Part shown: one piece after another, positions 180-49,699 of the stretch | How positions within the stretch are numbered: the stretch's first letter is position 1 | Layout of the letters: every line of letters starts with the position of its first letter | DNA from: Chromatiales bacterium | GTDB lineage: Bacteria > Pseudomonadota > Gammaproteobacteria > SpSt-1174 | DNA: 64,000 bases | Direction of reading: 5' to 3' | Assembly (NCBI GenBank): GCA_014762505.1 | Contig: JABURS010000037.1 | Span: forward strand, 1 to 64,000 | Translations under genes and position numbers: made by a program | The notes under the pieces: generated by a model | Told to the model about the DNA's origin: nothing | The model's input: only the letters and a program-made list of their open reading frames with translations | Databases searched by the model: none

Positions 180-785
180 TCATTCGAAACTAAACTCGCC
201 GCGGAACACTTCCTTATCATTCAATGAGACGCCGCATACGCGTGACAACTCCACCGGGACTAGATCAGTATTACCGCGTGTGGCAAAGTGGAACTTGTTC
301 AACGCGACATGACACACTGGTGATTCTTCGAATGATTTGACACGCATATCATCATTCGTATCAATTCTGCAGTCTGCGATAACTGACTCAGGCAGGGAGT
401 CGATGATGGCAGGTTTCATTTCCGCCATGTTATAAACCGAGAGCATGGAAACACATGTCCCTTCGGCGACGCCTCCAACGATTTCTTTTGAGAACTCTGG
501 TGAGCCCTTGGAGCTGCCGGCGAAGACGGTCTGACCATTTACTCGCACAAGATATTGCGATGGCTTGAACATTTCCTGCCGGATACAGAACACGGTATCA
601 ATCGTTTTTCCATCGATAACAGTCGATGAGGACTGACACCCTGGCGTGGCCGAGGAAAACAGGGAGAGCGTATCTGTTGCAGAAACTGGTTCGCGTGATT
701 CCGGCGGCAGTGCACATGCTGACAGAAAGAGGAGCGGCGGCAGAACAAAGGCAGGGCGACAATCCATATCCATCTCCATAATCAC
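180..785 (-). CDS. Putative lipoprotein of unknown function next to the TPS locus
   Basis: I do not recognise the family. The N-terminus has a short hydrophobic segment ending in a lipobox (FLSAC), so the protein is probably exported and lipid-anchored. Four in-frame ATG codons lie within the first 20 bases; a GGAG six bases before the fourth favours a start near 767 (about 195 residues). The mature part holds several cysteines (GCQSSS, VFCIRQ, GTCVSM, ADCRID, SPVCHV, RVCGVS), compatible with disulfides in the periplasm. It lies downstream of the immunity-like lipoprotein on the same strand, separated by 218 bases, and shares its low GC. It may be a second immunity gene or leftover cargo. Reality of the gene is likely, function is open. 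Confidence 0.6.
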   Translation of the reverse strand: MIMEMDMDCRPAFVLPPLLFLSACALPPESREPVSATDTLSLFSSATPGCQSSSTVIDGKTIDTVFCIRQEMFKPSQYLVRVNGQTVFAGSSKGSPEFSKEIVGGVAEGTCVSMLSVYNMAEMKPAIIDSLPESVIADCRIDTNDDMRVKSFEESPVCHVALNKFHFATRGNTDLVPVELSRVCGVSLNDKEVFRGEFSFE

Positions 786-41952: not shown

Positions 41953-43068
41953 TCAATCCCAGCTGAGTGCGCCACCGGTCTGGTACTCGGTGACCCGCGT
42001 CTCGAAAAAGTTCTTCTCCTTCCTCAGATTCGACTGCTCGTCCAGCCAGGGCAGGACGTTCTCGGCACCCGGGAACGGCTCGTCCAGGCCGAGCTGGCGG
42101 GCACGGCGATTGGCCACGAAACGGAACTGTGCGCTGTGCATGTCGGCGCTGTAGCCGAGGATCGGATCGGGCAGCAGGTAGCGTGCATAGGCCGCCTCCG
42201 CTGCCTCCGCCTCGGCCCACATCTCTTCCATGACGCGCGCCTCGGGCCGGATGTTCTCCTCCAGCATGATCTGCTTCGCCACCCGGATGCCGAAGCTCAC
42301 GTGCATGACCTCATCGCGCATGATGTACTGCAGCTGCTCGGCGCTTCCCTTCATGAGCCCGCGGCGCTGCAGGGCGAAGACGGGGGTGAAGCCGTTGTAG
42401 AACCAGCAACCCTCGAACACGCCGGCAAAGAAGATGTAGGCGAGCAGGAAATCCATCAGGTCGTCGCGCCGGGTGAGATCGATGTCCGCACGCATCACCG
42501 ACTCGAGGCGGCGGTTGGCGATGCGAATCTTGCCATGGATCTCCGGCACCACTCGGTAGCGGTTGTAGATCTCCTGCTGGTCCAGACCGAGGGTCTCGAT
42601 GCAGTGCTGGTAGGTCCAGGTGTGCAGCGATTCCTCGTAGACCTGGCGCGCCTGGTAGATCTGCAGTTCCGGTGCACTCATCTTCTCCATCACCGCGAGG
42701 CCGATGTTGCGCATGGCCAGGATGTCGGAGGTGGTGAGATACGCGAGCACGTTCTCGTAGACGTGCCGTTCCTCCATGGTCAGACGATGGTGGTAATCGT
42801 GCACGTCGGAGGCCATGTTGATGTCGAGCGGCGTCCAGTGATTGCGATTGGCATTGATGAAGTAGTTCCACGCCCAGGGATACTTGAAGGGCGCGAGCTG
42901 GTTGATGTCCGTGAGGCCGTTGACCACGCGCTTGTCGTCGGCATTCACGGGGCGCGGGCGCGCATCGGCCTTCGCATCTCCAGGAGCCGCTTGATCCTCG
43001 GCTGAAACAGGCGGTACCCGCGCCGCGCGGCCGGTAACGGCTGCAATCGGATCGTCCCAGTTCAACAT
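41953..43068 (-). CDS. nrdB: Class Ia ribonucleotide reductase small subunit
   Basis: 371 residues. Houses the di-iron centre and tyrosyl radical. Iron ligands and radical site are visible: E and H of YEESLHTWTYQ with the tyrosine four residues after the histidine as in E. coli Y122, E in GVFEGCWF, and E/H in RDEVMHVSFG. C-terminal acidic/aromatic tail is present for binding NrdA. Second gene after nrdA (28-base gap), under the same cobalamin riboswitch. Confidence 0.96.
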   Translation of the reverse strand: MLNWDDPIAAVTGRAARVPPVSAEDQAAPGDAKADARPRPVNADDKRVVNGLTDINQLAPFKYPWAWNYFINANRNHWTPLDINMASDVHDYHHRLTMEERHVYENVLAYLTTSDILAMRNIGLAVMEKMSAPELQIYQARQVYEESLHTWTYQHCIETLGLDQQEIYNRYRVVPEIHGKIRIANRRLESVMRADIDLTRRDDLMDFLLAYIFFAGVFEGCWFYNGFTPVFALQRRGLMKGSAEQLQYIMRDEVMHVSFGIRVAKQIMLEENIRPEARVMEEMWAEAEAAEAAYARYLLPDPILGYSADMHSAQFRFVANRRARQLGLDEPFPGAENVLPWLDEQSNLRKEKNFFETRVTEYQTGGALSWD

Positions 43069-43096: not shown

Positions 43097-45922
43097 TCAC
43101 TGACATGCCTCGCAATCCGGGTCCGTGATCGAACAGGCCTTTGGCGCCTCGCCCTCGGCGGCGGGCCCGGTGGTCTTTTCCACGTGGGTCGCGCCCATGG
43201 ATCGCAGGTAGTAAGTGGTCTTCAGGCCGCGCACCCAGGCGAGCTTGTACAGCGCGTCGAGCTTGCGACCCGAGGGCTCGGCCAGGTAGAGGTTGAGGGA
43301 CTGGGCCTGGTCCAGCCACTTCTGCCGGCGCGCGGCGGCCTCGACCAGCCAGCGTGGATCCAGCTCGAAGGCGGTGGCATACAGCGCGCGCAGCTCTGCG
43401 GGCACGGCGTCGATGGCGGCGACCGATCCGTCGTAGTACTTGAGGTCGTTGATCATGACCTCGTCCCAGCGCCCTAGCGTCTTCAGATCGCGCACCAGGT
43501 ACGGGTTGACCACGGTGAACTCGCCGGAGAGGTTCGATTTCACGAACAGGTTCTGGTAGGTGGGCTCGATGGATGGCGACACGCCGCAGATGTTGGCGAT
43601 GGTGGCGGTGGGCGCGATCGCCATGGTGTTGGAATTGCGCATGCCCTGACTGCGCACGCGTTCACGCAGGGCCTCCCAGTCGAGACGCGTCTCCCGGTCC
43701 ACGTCGAGATAGCCACCACGCTCGGCCGCCAGTCGCGCGATGGAATCGATGGGCAATATGCCCTGACTCCAGAGGGAGCCCTCGAAGCTCGCGTAACGTC
43801 CGCGCTCGACGGCCAGGTCGCTGGAGGCCTCGATCGCGTAGTAACTGATGGCCTCCATGGAGACGTCGGCAAACTGCACGGCCTCCTCGGAGGCATAGGG
43901 CAGGCGGGCGAGATAGAGCGCGTCCTGGAATCCCATCAGTCCCAGGCCGACCGGGCGGTGGCGCAGGTTCGAGCGGCGCGCCTGCGGCACGCTGTAGAAG
44001 TTGTAGTCGATGACGTTGTCGAGCATGCGCATGGCCGTGCGCACGGTGCGCCGCAGCTTGTCCTGATCGAGCGCGCCGTCGACCATGTGCCGCACCAGGT
44101 TGACGCTGCCGAGGTTGCACACGGCGATCTCGTGGTCCGAGGTATTCAGCGTGATCTCGGTACACAGGTTCGACGAGTGCACCACGCCCACATGGCCCTG
44201 CGGCGAACGCAGGTTGCAAGGGTCCTTGAAGGTGATCCAGGGATGCCCGGTCTCGAACAGCATGCCCAGCATCTTGCGCCACAGGTCGACGGCCTTGACC
44301 CGCTTGTGCACCCGCAGTTCGCCGCGGGCGGCCTGCGCCTCGTACTCGCGATAGCGTGCCTCGAATGCCGCGCCGTACAGGTCGTGCAGATCGGGCACCT
44401 CGTCGGGGGAGAACAGGCTCCACTCGCCCTCCTCGGCCACACGTTTCATGAACAGGTCGGGGATCCAGTTGGCGGTGTTCATGTCGTGGGTGCGGCGGCG
44501 GTCGTCGCCGGTGTTCTTGCGCAGCTCGAGAAACTCCTCGATGTCGATATGCCAGGTCTCCAGGTAGGCGCAGACCGCACCCTTGCGCTTGCCGCCCTGG
44601 TTCACGGCCACGGCCGTGTCGCTGGCGACCTTCATGAATGGCACCACACCCTGCGAGCTGCCGTTCGTGCCCTTGATATGGGCCCCCAGCCCGCGCACAC
44701 GCGTCCAGTCGTTGCCCAGCCCGCCTGCGAATTTCGACAGCAGCGCGTTGTCGCGGATGGCATTGTAGATGCCCTCCAGGTCGTCGGGCACGGTGGTGAG
44801 ATAGCAGGACGACAGCTGCGGCCGCAGGGTACCCGAGTTGAACAGCGTCGGCGTCGAGCACATGAAATCGAAGGACGACAGCAGCTCGTAGAACTCGATG
44901 GCTCGTGCCTCGCGGTCGATCTCGTGCATGGCCAGGCCCATGGCCACGCGCATGAAGAAGGCCTGGGGCAGTTCGAAGCGCACACCGTCGCTGTGCAGGA
45001 AATAACGGTCATAGAGCGTCTGCAGACCGAGGTAGGTGAACTGTTCGTCACGCTCGGGGCGCAGGGCCTGTCCCAGGCGGTCGACATCGAAACGGCGCAG
45101 CTCGGGATCGAGCAGCTCGCGCTCGATCCCGCGGGCCAGATAGTCCGCGAAGTACGCCGGATAGACCTCTGTCATGGCCGCGCGCGTGGCGTCGGCAGGG
45201 TGGCCGGAGAGAAACGCCAGCGCCTCGTGGCGCAGCTTGTCCAGCAGCAGGCGGGCCGCCACCTGCGAGTAGTCCGGGTCCTGCTCGATCAGCACCCGTG
45301 CACTCATCACCAGGGCATTGCCCAGGTCGGCCTCGCTCATGCCGTCGAACAGGTTACGGTGGCATTCGCATAGCAGGCGTGCCGGGTCTGCACCATCGAG
45401 TCCGTCGCAGGCCCCGGCCAGCAGGGCCTCGATCCGGGCATGGTCCACGGGGCGCACGCTGCCATCTGCCAGGCGGATGCCCAGCGCCGGTGTCCCGCCA
45501 CTGGGTGGGCCATCGGCGTCCGTGGCCTGACGTTCCCGGGCACGCTGTTCGCGGTACAACACATAGGCCCGCGCCACCTTGTGGTGGCCGTTGCGCATCA
45601 GGGCCAGTTCCACCTGGTCCTGGATGTCCTCGATATGCAGGGTCGCGTTCGCCGGCAACCGCCGCAGCAGGGCATCGGCCACATCGCCCGTCAGGCCCGC
45701 AACGGTCTCGTGGATGCGTCTCGATGCCGCGGCCTGACCACCCTCCACGGCCAGGAAGGCCTTGGTCAGGGCGACACTGATCTTGCCCGCATCGAAGGCC
45801 GTGACACTGCCGTTGCGCCGTATCACCTGGGGATGGGACGAGCCGATCTCGGGTCGGGGAATGGAGTCGAGCGGGGCCGTGACAGCCGTCCGCGGGGTCG
45901 AGTCGATTTGTTCGGTGTGCAT
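43097..45922 (-). CDS. nrdA: Class Ia ribonucleotide reductase large subunit
   Basis: 941 residues. Reduces ribonucleoside diphosphates. One ATP-cone (about 30-130) gives dATP feedback; the barrel has the active-site N-x-C-x-E (SSNLCTEITLN), the redox cysteines in LSSCYLTTVP and AVCNLGSVNL, and two radical-path tyrosines are expected near the YYDGS region. The C-terminus ends with a CEACQ thiol pair. Ribosome site GGGAGG at 45928-45933 can be masked by a hairpin (see 45925-45952). B12 control implies that the cell uses another, B12-dependent reductase (NrdJ) when cobalamin is available. Confidence 0.97.
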   Translation of the reverse strand: MHTEQIDSTPRTAVTAPLDSIPRPEIGSSHPQVIRRNGSVTAFDAGKISVALTKAFLAVEGGQAAASRRIHETVAGLTGDVADALLRRLPANATLHIEDIQDQVELALMRNGHHKVARAYVLYREQRARERQATDADGPPSGGTPALGIRLADGSVRPVDHARIEALLAGACDGLDGADPARLLCECHRNLFDGMSEADLGNALVMSARVLIEQDPDYSQVAARLLLDKLRHEALAFLSGHPADATRAAMTEVYPAYFADYLARGIERELLDPELRRFDVDRLGQALRPERDEQFTYLGLQTLYDRYFLHSDGVRFELPQAFFMRVAMGLAMHEIDREARAIEFYELLSSFDFMCSTPTLFNSGTLRPQLSSCYLTTVPDDLEGIYNAIRDNALLSKFAGGLGNDWTRVRGLGAHIKGTNGSSQGVVPFMKVASDTAVAVNQGGKRKGAVCAYLETWHIDIEEFLELRKNTGDDRRRTHDMNTANWIPDLFMKRVAEEGEWSLFSPDEVPDLHDLYGAAFEARYREYEAQAARGELRVHKRVKAVDLWRKMLGMLFETGHPWITFKDPCNLRSPQGHVGVVHSSNLCTEITLNTSDHEIAVCNLGSVNLVRHMVDGALDQDKLRRTVRTAMRMLDNVIDYNFYSVPQARRSNLRHRPVGLGLMGFQDALYLARLPYASEEAVQFADVSMEAISYYAIEASSDLAVERGRYASFEGSLWSQGILPIDSIARLAAERGGYLDVDRETRLDWEALRERVRSQGMRNSNTMAIAPTATIANICGVSPSIEPTYQNLFVKSNLSGEFTVVNPYLVRDLKTLGRWDEVMINDLKYYDGSVAAIDAVPAELRALYATAFELDPRWLVEAAARRQKWLDQAQSLNLYLAEPSGRKLDALYKLAWVRGLKTTYYLRSMGATHVEKTTGPAAEGEAPKACSITDPDCEACQ

Positions 45923-45924
45923 CT

Positions 45925-45952
45925 GCGCCTCCCAGGGTCCGTTCGGAGTCGC
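45925..45952 (-). promoter_or_regulatory. Hairpin masking the nrdA ribosome site
   Basis: In the transcript GCGACTCC (45945-45952) can pair with GGAGGCGC (45925-45932), seven pairs and one mismatch, covering the Shine-Dalgarno. This is a plausible translational expression platform for the upstream cobalamin riboswitch, since no U-tract terminator is seen in the leader. Confidence 0.5.
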
Positions 45953-46099
45953 CGCATCGCTGCGACGGGTATCGGCGCCTCACACATGACAGCTGCGGGG
46001 GGATTGAAGGATCGGTCGTTTCCGCATTCGAGCCGGGCACGGGCCTCCAACCCCGACGCCTGTTACGCGAAGGCGAGGGTCGGGCGACCAATCGGCCGC

Positions 46100-46300
46100 C
46101 GGGCTCAGGCAGGTCTTCGGACTCGGGGGCATCACCTGGAACCTACGGTCGCGGCTTCCCATCCCGTGTGGACAGTGCCCGGTACGCCCTTGGCGACGTA
46201 CCCTGCGACCTTCGTTCCCCCATACCGCTGCGCGTCAGTCCCGGATTCTCACCGGGTTCCCTGTTGCCTGCACCCCTAGGGATAGGGGTACAACCTGAGC
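46100..46300 (-). ncRNA. Cobalamin (B12) riboswitch upstream of nrdAB
   Basis: Reading the minus strand 5' to 3': AGGTTG (46291-46296), then AGGGAACCCGGTGAGAATCC and CGCGCAGCGGTATG, the conserved core of the aptamer, then later the B12-box segment GTCCGAAGACCTGCCTGAGC (about 46103-46122). Length about 200 bases is usual. It ends some 180 bases before the nrdA start. It should repress class Ia reductase when adenosylcobalamin is present. The 423-base gap 45923-46345 is fully explained by this element, its leader and promoter. Confidence 0.93.
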
Positions 46301-46308
46301 TTGGGCAC

Positions 46309-46337
46309 AAGATATAGGGGTTCTAGCCGATTCGCAA
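46309..46337 (-). promoter_or_regulatory. Probable sigma70 promoter for riboswitch-nrdAB
   Basis: Minus strand TTGCGA (46332-46337), 17-base spacer, TATCTT (46309-46314; TATATC two bases upstream is an alternative). The start would fall near 46302, immediately before the aptamer. Confidence 0.5.
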
Positions 46338-46345
46338 GCTCCCCG

Positions 46346-47290
46346 TCAGTCGCCCTCCTGGACTGGGTGCACATCGGCGAGACGGGCGAGACAGGTCTCC
46401 CGCGCCTGCTCGACAAAGGCCGCCAGGTGCGGCAAGCCGGCCTCGCCGCTGCGCATGGCGGCATGGAGGGTGGCCTGCAGACCCTGCGGTCCGAGCGGCC
46501 GGGCAAGCAGGTAGCCCCGGTCCAGTTCTTCGGCCACCGCCCAGCGTGGCAGTGCGGCCACGCCGCGTCCGCTGGCCACCAGCTGCAGCAGCATGGGGGT
46601 GAGCTCGGTCCGGCGCCATTCGGCCGGCGCAACACCCGCCGGGGTCAGAAAGCGCGACCAGATGTCCAGATACTCGGCCGCGACCGGATACGTCACCAGC
46701 ATCTCGTCGCGCAGGTCCTGCGGACGTACGTGAGCCACCGCGGCGAGTCGGTGACGGGGTGATATCACCAGCACGTTCTCGTAGCGAAACAAGGGGCGGT
46801 AGGTCACATCCCGTCGCAGCTGCGGATCGGCGGTGATGGCCAGATCGATGTCGCCCCGCGCCAGCGCCGACAGGGTGGCATCAGGGAACGACAGGGTAAG
46901 ATCCACCTCGATCTGCGGGTGATCGGCCTGGTAACGGTCGAGCGTGGGCATCAGCCAGTCGAAGCAGGCGTGGCATTCCAGGGCCAGGTAGAGGCGCCCG
47001 GCATTGCCGCTGGCCAGCCGCTCGAGGGCCTGGTGTGCAGCACGCACCCGGGGCAGCAGCTCATCGGCCAGCGTCAGCAGCCGCTGGCCGGCCTCGGTGA
47101 AGACCAGCGGACGGCTGTTGCGCGTGAACAACGGCAGGCCGAGCTGGTGTTCCAGCGCCTTGAGCTGGTGCGAGAGGGCCGATTGGGTGAGGTGCAGCCG
47201 CTCGGCCGCCGCCACGAGGCTGCCGGCCTCGCGCAGCACGACGAGGGTACGCAGGTGCCGCAACTCCACCGGGTTATGAATAGGATTCAT
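46346..47290 (-). CDS. metR: LysR-family regulator MetR
   Basis: 314 residues from the ATG at 47290; the frame stays open far upstream but that part is antisense to metE. N-terminal winged helix (VELRHLRTLVVLREAGSLVAA, then LTQSALSHQLKALE) and a LysR substrate domain with HACFDWLMPTL, typical of MetR. It activates metE with homocysteine as co-effector. Divergent from metE with 87 bases between. Confidence 0.93.
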   Translation of the reverse strand: MNPIHNPVELRHLRTLVVLREAGSLVAAAERLHLTQSALSHQLKALEHQLGLPLFTRNSRPLVFTEAGQRLLTLADELLPRVRAAHQALERLASGNAGRLYLALECHACFDWLMPTLDRYQADHPQIEVDLTLSFPDATLSALARGDIDLAITADPQLRRDVTYRPLFRYENVLVISPRHRLAAVAHVRPQDLRDEMLVTYPVAAEYLDIWSRFLTPAGVAPAEWRRTELTPMLLQLVASGRGVAALPRWAVAEELDRGYLLARPLGPQGLQATLHAAMRSGEAGLPHLAAFVEQARETCLARLADVHPVQEGD

Positions 47291-47377: not shown

Positions 47378-49699
47378 ATGGACACGAAACGCATCACGAC
47401 ACACAACCTGGGCTATCCGCGCATCGGCGCACGGCGCGAACTCAAGTTCGCGCTCGAGGACTACTGGCGCGGCGAGCTGGACGCGGCCGGACTGGAGGCC
47501 GCGGGGCGCGCGCTGCGCGAACGCCACTGGCGGGAACAGCGTGCGGCGGGCATGGATTGGGTACCGGTGGGCGACTTCTCTCTCTACGACCACGTTGCCG
47601 ACACCACCCTCTTGCTGGGCGCTGCCCCGGCACGCTTCGGTGCGGAGGCGAACCCGCTCGAGGGCTACTTCCGCATGGCCCGCGGCCGCGCCCACGCCGA
47701 TGATCCCGGGACCACGCCTGCCCTGGAGATGACCAAGTGGTTCGACACCAACTACCACTACCTGGTCCCGGAGCTGCACAGCGGGCAGTCGTTCCGCCTG
47801 CACGGCGAGCGCCTGTTCGCCCAGGTGCGCGAGGCACAGGCGCTGGGACTGGGCGCCAAGCCGGTGATCCTGGGGCCGCTCACCTGGCTCTGGCTCGGCA
47901 AGATGGCCGACGACGGCGACCGCCTCGCCCTGCTCGACGCCCTGCTGCCCGTCTACGGCGAGCTGCTGTCCGAACTCGCACGACTGGGATGCAGCTGGGT
48001 GCAGATCGACGAACCCATCCTGGTGCTCGACCTGCCGCCAGCCTGGAAGCAGGCCTTCGAGACCACCTACCACCGGTTGCAGACCCCCGGCCTGAAGTCC
48101 CTGCTCACCACCTATTTCGGCGACCTCGGCGACAACACGGCACTGGCCTGCCGATTGCCCGTGGATGGACTGCACGTCGACCTGGCCCGCGCGCCCGACC
48201 AGCTGACGCGCGTGCTCGACCACCTGCCGGCCTACAGGCAACTGTCGCTCGGGGTGGTCGACGGCCGCAACGTGTGGCGCTGCGACCTGGAGGCTGCCCG
48301 CGCGCGGATCGGCGAGACGCTGGCGCGACGCCCGCAGGGTCTCTGGCTCGCTCCGAGCTGTTCCCTGCTGCACGTCCCGCAGGACCTCGATCAAGAACCG
48401 GAACTGGACGGGGAACTGCGCACCTGGCTCGCCTTTGCGCGCCAGAAGCTCGACGAGGTGGGCCTGCTGGCGCGCCTGGCGAGCACCCCTGAACCCGCGC
48501 CGGCCGATGCCGCTGCCCTGCACCAGGGCACGGCAGCCTTCGCGGCGCGCCTCGCCTCGCCGCGCATCCATCGCCCCGAGGTGACCGAGCGCCTGGCCTC
48601 GCTGCCGGCGGACATCGACCGGCGCAGACACCCCTTCGCCGTTCGCAAGCGCGCACAACAGGCGCGGCTGGGGCTGCCTCTGCTGCCCACCACCACCATC
48701 GGCTCCTTCCCGCAGACGGCCGGGATCCGCCGCACCCGGCAGGCCTTCAAACAGGGACGGATCAGCAAGGCGGACTACGAGACCGCCATGCAGGCGAGCA
48801 TCCGCGAGGCGGTCGAGCGACAGGAGGCGCTGGGCCTGGACGTGCTGGTACACGGGGAGCCCGAACGCAACGACATGGTGGAGTACTTCGGCGAGCAGCT
48901 GGAGGGCTATGCCTTCACGCGCCACGGCTGGGTGCAGTCCTATGGCTCGCGCTGCGTCAAACCACCCATCATCTATGGCGACGTGCTGCGGCCGGCCGCG
49001 ATGACGGTGGCCTGGTCACACTATGCCCACTCGCTCACCGACCACCCCATGAAAGGGATGCTCACGGGACCGGTGACCATGCTGCAATGGTCCTTCGTGC
49101 GCGACGATCAGCCGCGCGCACGCACCTGCGAGCAGATCGCCCTGGCCCTGCGCGACGAGGTATGCGACCTGGAGGCCGCCGGCATCGGCATCATCCAGAT
49201 CGACGAGCCGGCCCTGCGCGAAGGCCTGCCGCTGCGTCGGCAGGACTGGGCATCCTACCTGGACTGGGCGGTGCGCTGCTTTCGCATCACGGCCTCCGGG
49301 GTGGCGGACGACACCCAGATCCACACCCACATGTGCTACGCCGAATTCAACGACATCATCGAGGCCATCGCCGCCCTGGATGCGGACGTGATCACCATCG
49401 AGGCCTCGCGTTCGGACATGGCCCTGCTGGAGGCCTTCGAGGACTTCGCCTACCCCAACGACATCGGGCCCGGCGTCTATGACATCCACACGCCCAACGT
49501 GCCAACCGTGGACGAAATCCGCGTGCGACTGGAAAAGGCCCTGGCCCGGATCCCGGCCGAGCGGCTGTGGGTCAACCCGGACTGCGGGCTCAAGACCCGC
49601 GGCTGGCCCGAGGTGGAGGCGGCGCTGCGCGCCATGGTGACGGCCACCAATGCCCTGCGCGGGGCGCTTGGGGACGCGGGACGCCAGCGTACCGCCTGA
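47378..49699 (+). CDS. metE: Cobalamin-independent methionine synthase
   Basis: 773 residues, full length. Transfers a methyl group from methyltetrahydrofolate-triglutamate to homocysteine without B12. Two-barrel enzyme: N-terminal barrel ([18 protein letters not shown]) and C-terminal catalytic barrel with [24 protein letters not shown], and zinc ligands in HTHMCYAEF and [18 protein letters not shown] lies seven bases before the ATG. Regulated by the divergent metR; I see no riboswitch in its short leader. Confidence 0.97.

What the first reader, a model, noticed from the sequence alone, without database searches (positions are those of the whole stretch)
45923..46337. Cobalamin riboswitch on class Ia nrdAB with an apparent translational platform
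B12 control of nrdAB is known from Streptomyces but is not the usual gammaproteobacterial arrangement as far as I know. The ribosome-site-masking hairpin about 150 bases after the aptamer suggests that ligand binding blocks translation rather than transcription.
Basis: partly seen in the sequence, partly recalled or inferred. Interest (0 to 1): 0.6.

Follow-up and report, generated by a model that had tools for sequence, protein, structure and literature searches.

The report
B12 riboswitch carrying an NrdR operator
The genes for the vitamin-B12-independent DNA-precursor enzyme start with an RNA switch that should turn them down when vitamin B12 is plentiful, and in this and some 14 other bacterial families one hairpin of that switch is also, at the DNA level, the landing site of the repressor NrdR, so two controls share the same letters.

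Summary
The riboswitch is real: RF00174, minus strand, 46313-46091, 96 bits, 168 nt upstream of nrdA (class I) and nrdB. B12 control of a B12-independent isozyme is a known kind. It is not rare in Gammaproteobacteria: 24 of 369 sampled genomes (17 families), often as metE-metR-riboswitch-nrdA.

The promoter carries a pair of NrdR boxes 32 bp apart (46320-46305 and 46288-46273), the only such pair scoring above 9 in the 64 kb. Box 1 covers the -10 element at the aptamer's 5' edge. Box 2 is the P2 hairpin of the aptamer. In 24 of 26 gammaproteobacterial leaders the best downstream NrdR box lies exactly at +31/+32 and coincides with P2; other B12 riboswitches lack it (p=6.5e-9). P2 pairs outside the operator covary, so DNA and RNA constraints coexist.

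The local RBS-masking hairpin is weak, but no terminator exists and masked Shine-Dalgarno sites are commoner in these leaders than in riboswitch-less nrdA leaders (p=0.003), so translational control is likely, not shown. In this species box 2 is a degenerate NrdR match (10/16). New variant of a known kind.

The parts
46332..46337 (-). -35 element TTGCGA (17 nt before the -10)
   Evidence: Read directly. CTTGC at this spacing recurs in most homologous leaders. The generic sigma-70 scan did not call it.
46309..46314 (-). -10 element TATCTT, inside NrdR box 1; transcription start expected near 46302
   Evidence: Read directly. TATCTTG plus 17 nt from the -35 is conserved in the homologous leaders. 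Start site inferred, not mapped.
46305..46320 (-). NrdR box 1, CCCCTATATCTTGTGC
   Evidence: 13/16 to the NrdR consensus, PWM 17.3.
46273..46288 (-). NrdR box 2, CCCCTATCCCTAGGGG, 32 bp from box 1 (16-bp linker)
   Evidence: 10/16, PWM 4.8 (top 0.07% of window positions). Pair score 22.2 against 8.3 for the next pair in 64 kb. Identical in the congener L027.
46091..46313 (-). Cobalamin (AdoCbl, class I type) riboswitch aptamer
   Evidence: RF00174, 96.1 bits.
46268..46293 (-). P2 hairpin of the aptamer (11-bp stem, loop UCCC), coextensive with NrdR box 2 plus flanks
   Evidence: Rfam alignment; folding; covariation of the stem in 24 homologues.
46050..46084 (-). Hairpin just after the aptamer with a UUCGCGUAACA loop, recurring in homologous leaders
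   Evidence: Seen in L027, L052, L120-L126; GCCT/AGGC alternates with ACCT/AGGT. Role unknown.
45925..45978 (-).
   Evidence: Folding; both arms identical in L027; no covariation available within the genus.
45928..45933 (-). Shine-Dalgarno GGGAGG of nrdA
   Evidence: Read directly.
43097..45922 (-). nrdA, class I ribonucleotide reductase alpha subunit, 941 aa
   Evidence: PRK07207, 1685 bits.
41953..43068 (-). nrdB, beta subunit, 371 aa
   Evidence: PRK07209, 355.8 bits.
46346..47260 (-). metR-like LysR regulator, upstream neighbour on the same strand
   Evidence: Best match PRK15421 MetR, 242 bits (below its cut-off of 382); synteny in homologues.
47378..49699 (+). metE, B12-independent methionine synthase, divergent from metR
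   Evidence: TIGR01371, 1057 bits (cut-off 930).

Best explanation
nrdAB is controlled by two layered, partly superimposed elements. (1) DNA: the repressor NrdR, loaded with ATP and dATP, binds two boxes 32 bp apart. Box 1 covers the -10 region and box 2 lies in the transcribed leader, so binding blocks initiation when deoxynucleotides are plentiful. (2) RNA: once transcribed, the same segment that is box 2 folds into P2 of an adenosylcobalamin riboswitch. With AdoCbl bound, the leader hides the nrdA Shine-Dalgarno site, shutting off the B12-independent class I enzyme because the B12-dependent NrdJ can do the job. Because an NrdR box is a near-palindrome, it can double as a hairpin, so the P2 arm has been kept under both constraints in many gammaproteobacterial families. 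Shown by sequence: riboswitch, gene order, box pair and spacing, P2 coincidence across 24 leaders, P2 covariation, co-occurrence with NrdJ, presence of nrdR. Inferred: NrdR binding, AdoCbl binding, translational output, transcription start. In this species box 2 is a degenerate match, so NrdR's grip here may be weaker than in relatives.
For: Riboswitch. nrdA/nrdB. NrdJ twice, metH present, no NrdD, nrdR present. NrdR pair: only pair above 9 in the 64 kb. 40 nrdA promoters without a detected riboswitch carry the same 31/32-bp pair, matching the 15-16-bp linker reported for E. coli NrdR boxes (PMC12176259). 24 of 26 nrd-type leaders have the best downstream box at +31/+32, coextensive with P2; mean score 13.0 against -3.7 in 27 other B12 riboswitches, p=6.5e-9, 24 of 26 above the control maximum. 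The search pattern did not include P2. P2 covariation 0.508 against 0.166 +/- 0.031 in shuffles, all five pairs outside the operator with double changes. Both isozymes in 23 of 24 riboswitch-nrd genomes against 4 of 24 without, Fisher p=2.3e-8. SD less accessible than in riboswitch-less nrdA leaders (0.28 against 0.42, p=0.003) and no terminator.
Against: In this window box 2 matches the NrdR consensus at only 10/16, with a C-rich centre (TATCCCTA). Two nrdA leaders (L143, L144) have a riboswitch but no box in P2. In most Rhizobiales leaders the NrdR pair sits one register upstream or overlaps P2 only partly. The 3' leader here is no more stable than shuffles, and a loop partner for L5 (kissing loop) was not identified. 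G206 keeps the riboswitch without a detectable NrdJ.
Confidence: 0.78

Rival explanations
1. Only the riboswitch matters in this organism: P2 is an ordinary hairpin, box 2 has decayed, and NrdR acts weakly or through box 1 alone.
For: Box 2 here scores 4.8, with TCCC in the centre, against 13-20 in many homologues. The same centre recurs in L135 and L139.
Against: Spacing of exactly 32 bp, dyad symmetry and the half-site cores are kept; pair score 22 is unique in 64 kb. E. coli nrdAB box 2 is also non-canonical in its centre and binds well (PMC12176259). Box 2 is identical in the congener.
Confidence: 0.3
2. The riboswitch works by premature (Rho-dependent or other) transcription termination rather than by hiding the ribosome site.
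For: In P. acnes much nrdAB transcription stops before the first gene, in line with its cobalamin riboswitch (PMC3848588). The leader is long and the local SD hairpin is weak. Rho dependence cannot be seen with these tools.
Against: No intrinsic terminator. SD masking is stronger than in control leaders, and several homologues have strong SD hairpins (L121, L125, L132).
Confidence: 0.3
3. P2 resembles an NrdR box by RNA-level convergence (a loop motif), not because NrdR binds DNA there.
For: P2 is a variable helix and palindromes are natural there.
Against: The motif is absent from P2 of 27 other B12 riboswitches, is fixed at 31/32 bp from a promoter-overlapping box 1, and equals the pair found in riboswitch-less nrdA promoters.
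Confidence: 0.05
4. The aptamer is a non-functional relic.
For: No biochemical evidence in hand.
Against: 96 bits with all core elements; the leader in the congener (NrdA N-terminus 82% identical) keeps the aptamer core; conserved over 17 families.
Confidence: 0.03

Closest known systems
Cobalamin riboswitch RF00174 controlling B12-independent isozymes (nrdAB, nrdDG, metE)
   Same: Same RNA family, same target logic: the B12-independent isozyme is switched off by B12 (PMC3766115; P. acnes nrdAB/nrdDG, PMC3848588; Streptomyces nrdAB, from memory).
   Different: Here a DNA operator of a repressor is embedded in the aptamer's P2 helix; no such overlap is described in the papers searched.
NrdR regulon operators (paired 16-bp boxes, 15-16-bp linker)
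   Same: Two boxes 32 bp apart over the nrdAB promoter, box 1 over the -10, box 2 downstream, as in E. coli nrdAB (PMC12176259).
   Different: Box 2 doubles as a structural helix of a riboswitch aptamer; in this species it is degenerate.
Cutibacterium (Propionibacterium) acnes nrdAB leader
   Same: Cobalamin riboswitch plus NrdR box at the nrdAB promoter (PMC3848588).
   Different: Only one nrd-box was reported there; whether a second hides in P2 was not tested here. The output seen there was premature termination.
Rhizobiales nrdAB riboswitch leaders (L053-L089)
   Same: B12 riboswitch directly upstream of the same NrdA type; SD masked by GCCCC/GGGG hairpins.
   Different: NrdR pair mostly upstream of the aptamer or only partly in P2; different promoter (TTGACA).

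Membership tests
Cobalamin riboswitch (RF00174) | Covariance-model score above the gathering threshold with all core elements | tested here: met
   96.1 bits against 31.5, model 1-189
Cobalamin riboswitch (RF00174) | Binds adenosylcobalamin and changes gene expression | not testable with these tools
   Needs in-line probing and reporter assays
Cobalamin riboswitch (RF00174) | Expression platform (L5-L13 kissing loop, SD sequestration or terminator) | tested here: inconclusive
   No terminator; weak SD masking here, family-level masking p=0.003; no L5 partner identified by eye
B12-repressed B12-independent isozyme | Genome also encodes the B12-dependent isozyme | tested here: met
   Two NrdJ over cut-off; 23 of 24 homologous cases
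NrdR regulon | nrdR gene present | tested here: met
   TIGR00244, 212 bits against 124.65
NrdR regulon | Two 16-bp boxes with 15-16-bp linker at the promoter | tested here: met
   46320-46305 and 46288-46273, 32 bp apart; unique pair in the window; box 2 weak on its own (10/16)
NrdR regulon | NrdR binds and represses | not testable with these tools
   Needs EMSA or MST and an nrdR deletion
Class I (Ia-type) ribonucleotide reductase | NrdA with ATP-cone plus adjacent NrdB | tested here: met
   PRK07207 and PRK07209 over cut-off; ATP-cone region also hit by NrdD models at residues 31-134

The most novel reading that the evidence does not exclude
In Gammaproteobacteria the second NrdR operator box of nrdAB has been incorporated into the P2 helix of an AdoCbl riboswitch, so one stretch of DNA serves as a repressor operator and encodes an aptamer helix, integrating dNTP and B12 status in superimposed elements. 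A DNA-binding repressor site built into a riboswitch aptamer and conserved over some 15 families would be a new architecture.
Probability: 0.75. Interest if true: 0.68.

Novelty: new variant of a known kind. Interest (0 to 1): 0.58.

Why it matters
It shows how a DNA operator and an RNA aptamer can be written in the same letters, and gives a natural test bed for how two signals (dNTP level through NrdR, coenzyme B12 through the RNA) are combined on an essential gene. It also suggests a route by which riboswitches attach to promoters: the palindromic operator supplies a ready-made hairpin. The prediction is cheap to test with purified NrdR and short leaders.

Tried and rejected
Intrinsic terminator: none. 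Consensus sigma-70 scan missed the promoter, which is recognised only by comparison. Unusual stability of the 3' leader: z between -2.1 and +0.7 in ten leaders, so no general signal. An L5 kissing partner downstream was looked for by eye and not found. One pattern hit, L130 (G246), is a chance match without a riboswitch and was excluded. A regex first classed L066 and L067 as riboswitch-free; Rfam showed riboswitches, so the NrdR matrix was retrained without them with the same result. The idea that the riboswitch serves metR was dropped because metR lies upstream. The idea that the gene came with its riboswitch from Rhizobiales was not supported: the alphaproteobacterial clade nests among gammaproteobacterial riboswitch-bearing lineages, with weak deep support.

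Full report
WHAT IS THERE. Rfam finds one RNA element in the 64 kb: a cobalamin riboswitch, RF00174, minus strand 46313-46091, 96.1 bits. Downstream on the same strand are nrdA (45922-43097, PRK07207) and nrdB (43068-41953, PRK07209), a class I ribonucleotide reductase with N-terminal ATP-cone. Upstream lies a metR-like LysR gene and, divergent from it, metE. The window's genome (2.77 Mb, 43 contigs, 100% complete by the tool's estimate) has two cobalamin riboswitches, this one and one in front of a TonB-dependent receptor related to BtuB. It has two NrdJ genes over the curated cut-off (C31 and C42), metH, nrdR and no NrdD.

HOW UNUSUAL IS THE ARRANGEMENT. Among the 80 loci with the closest NrdA in genome contigs, cobalamin riboswitches sit directly upstream of nrdA in Rhizobiales (13 loci), one Acidobacteria MAG and gammaproteobacterial MAGs (L052, L070) by pattern, plus L066 and L067 by Rfam. 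A pattern made of the -10/NrdR half TATCTTG and the aptamer core GGGAANNCGGTG, with nothing specified between them, hit 25 of 369 gammaproteobacterial genomes; the reversed control pattern hit 5. One hit (L130) is a chance match. Of 20 loci given to Rfam, 19 score as cobalamin riboswitches and L130 does not. The remaining 24 genomes fall in 17 families. nrdA follows in nearly all. Judged from the translated sequence, L120 has a class III nrdD-like gene and L140/L141 an ATP-cone-like remnant; L131 ends at a contig edge. The order metE-metR-riboswitch-nrdA recurs in at least a dozen loci. So the arrangement is a minority but recurrent gammaproteobacterial theme, and a member of a known kind: B12 control of B12-independent isozymes is on record (PMC3766115; P. 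acnes nrdAB and nrdDG, PMC3848588).

WHY IT IS THERE. Searching 24 pattern-positive and 24 pattern-negative genomes for NrdJ, 23 of 24 positives have NrdJ beside the riboswitch-controlled reductase, whereas only 4 of 24 negatives have both isozymes; Fisher p=2.3e-8 (NrdA in the negatives read from sub-threshold hits of the same model).

TATCTTGTG at the 5' edge of the aptamer is half of an NrdR box. NrdR binds paired 16-bp palindromic boxes with a 15-16-bp linker over RNR promoters, and in E. coli nrdAB the functional box 2 lies downstream of the promoter with a non-canonical centre (PMC12176259). A position weight matrix was trained on box pairs of nrdA promoters without riboswitch (40 pairs, spacing 31 or 32). 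With it the window contains one pair of note: 46320-46305 (17.3) and 46288-46273 (4.8), 32 bp apart, sum 22.2; the next best pair in 64 kb scores 8.3. Across 19 riboswitch-nrdA leaders the pair score averages 13.9 against -11.4 for other B12 riboswitches, p=3e-9. Box 2 is the P2 hairpin of the aptamer. In 24 of 26 gammaproteobacterial nrd-type riboswitches the best downstream box lies exactly at +31 or +32 and coincides with P2, with forms such as CACTAGATGTAGTG or CACAACATATGGTG. The mean score in the P2 region is 13.0 against -3.7 (maximum 3.8) in 27 other B12 riboswitches, p=6.5e-9. The search pattern did not constrain P2, so this is not circular. Exceptions are L143 and L144, whose NrdA is of another type (43-44% identity); L144 has its second box upstream (L017).

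BOTH CONSTRAINTS HOLD. On an ungapped alignment of 24 P2 segments the helix shows a covariation score of 0.508 against 0.166 +/- 0.031 in shuffles (0 of 500) and at most 0.213 when slid; all five pairs outside the 16-bp operator have double changes. So P2 is maintained as an RNA helix beyond the operator, while the operator inside it keeps the NrdR sequence.

THE PROMOTER. -35 TTGCGA (46337-46332), 17 nt, -10 TATCTT (46314-46309); the same layout recurs in the homologues. This puts the start near 46302, just before P1. The start is inferred.

EXPRESSION PLATFORM. No intrinsic terminator. In the window the SD GGGAGG (45933-45928) can pair with CUCC (45948-45945) or be caught in GCGCC/GGCGC (45978-45974 with 45929-45925), but the 3' leader is not unusually stable (z +0.74). 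Across 18 riboswitch-nrdA leaders the SD is less accessible than in 53 leaders without a detected riboswitch (0.28 against 0.42, p=0.003; L066/L067 may be among the controls, which would only blunt the contrast), and several have strong SD hairpins (L121, L125, L132). Translational control is thus the better bet; Rho-dependent termination is not excluded.

EVOLUTION. On a tree of 97 NrdA fragments the riboswitch label needs 8 changes against 27.7 for shuffled labels; L066, L067 and several loci truncated upstream were left unlabelled, so the true number is probably lower. Deep branches are weak.

LIMITS. In this species box 2 is a poor NrdR match (10/16, C-rich centre; the same type of centre in L135 and L139), so NrdR control here is less certain than in the family. 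No biochemistry was possible. The literature search covered only the open PMC set; the Streptomyces and the original comparative-genomics papers were not available and are cited from memory or through later papers. No paper found mentions an NrdR site inside a riboswitch.

Noticed in passing
L120 (G267), minus strand, downstream of the riboswitch at 1332-1564: The same NrdR-box-bearing B12 riboswitch stands before a class III (nrdD-like, from the translated sequence) anaerobic reductase instead of nrdA.
   Followed up: partly
L140 and L141 (G237, G123; one genus): Intact riboswitch and NrdR boxes precede only a short ORF resembling the ATP-cone region of NrdA (30% identity); these genomes have two NrdJ and no full NrdA hit. 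It may be a relic or a stand-alone ATP-cone protein.
   Followed up: partly
L126 (G206:C1:11830): G206 has two riboswitch-nrdA loci, one with a broken nrdA, and no detectable NrdJ: the only exception to the isozyme rule.
   Followed up: no
L035:7568-7615 (G000:C41): A second strong NrdR box pair (24.1, 32 bp) in the window's genome, overlapping a likely minus-strand promoter (TTGACG-18-TATAGT) before an 85-aa ORF without Pfam match, in a same-strand row of ORFs that includes a thioredoxin-like gene; about 165 bp from the btuB-type riboswitch.
   Followed up: partly
L036:9444 and 9589: Upstream of the C31 nrdJ two strong single NrdR boxes (21.8 and 15.7) lie 145 bp apart instead of 31/32.
   Followed up: no
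window 46084-46050 and homologous leaders: A hairpin right after the aptamer with a CGCG-containing loop (UUCGCGUAACA type) is shared by most gammaproteobacterial nrdA leaders and seems to covary; role unknown, possibly the regulatory hairpin.
   Followed up: partly
window 545-560: A single strong NrdR-like box (GCACAAGATATTGCGA, 15.8) without a partner.
   Followed up: no
L006 (G030) and L026 (G044): In these genomes a B12 riboswitch lies beside metE; in L026 it sits between metR and metE, the other side of metR from the riboswitch-nrdA arrangement.
   Followed up: no
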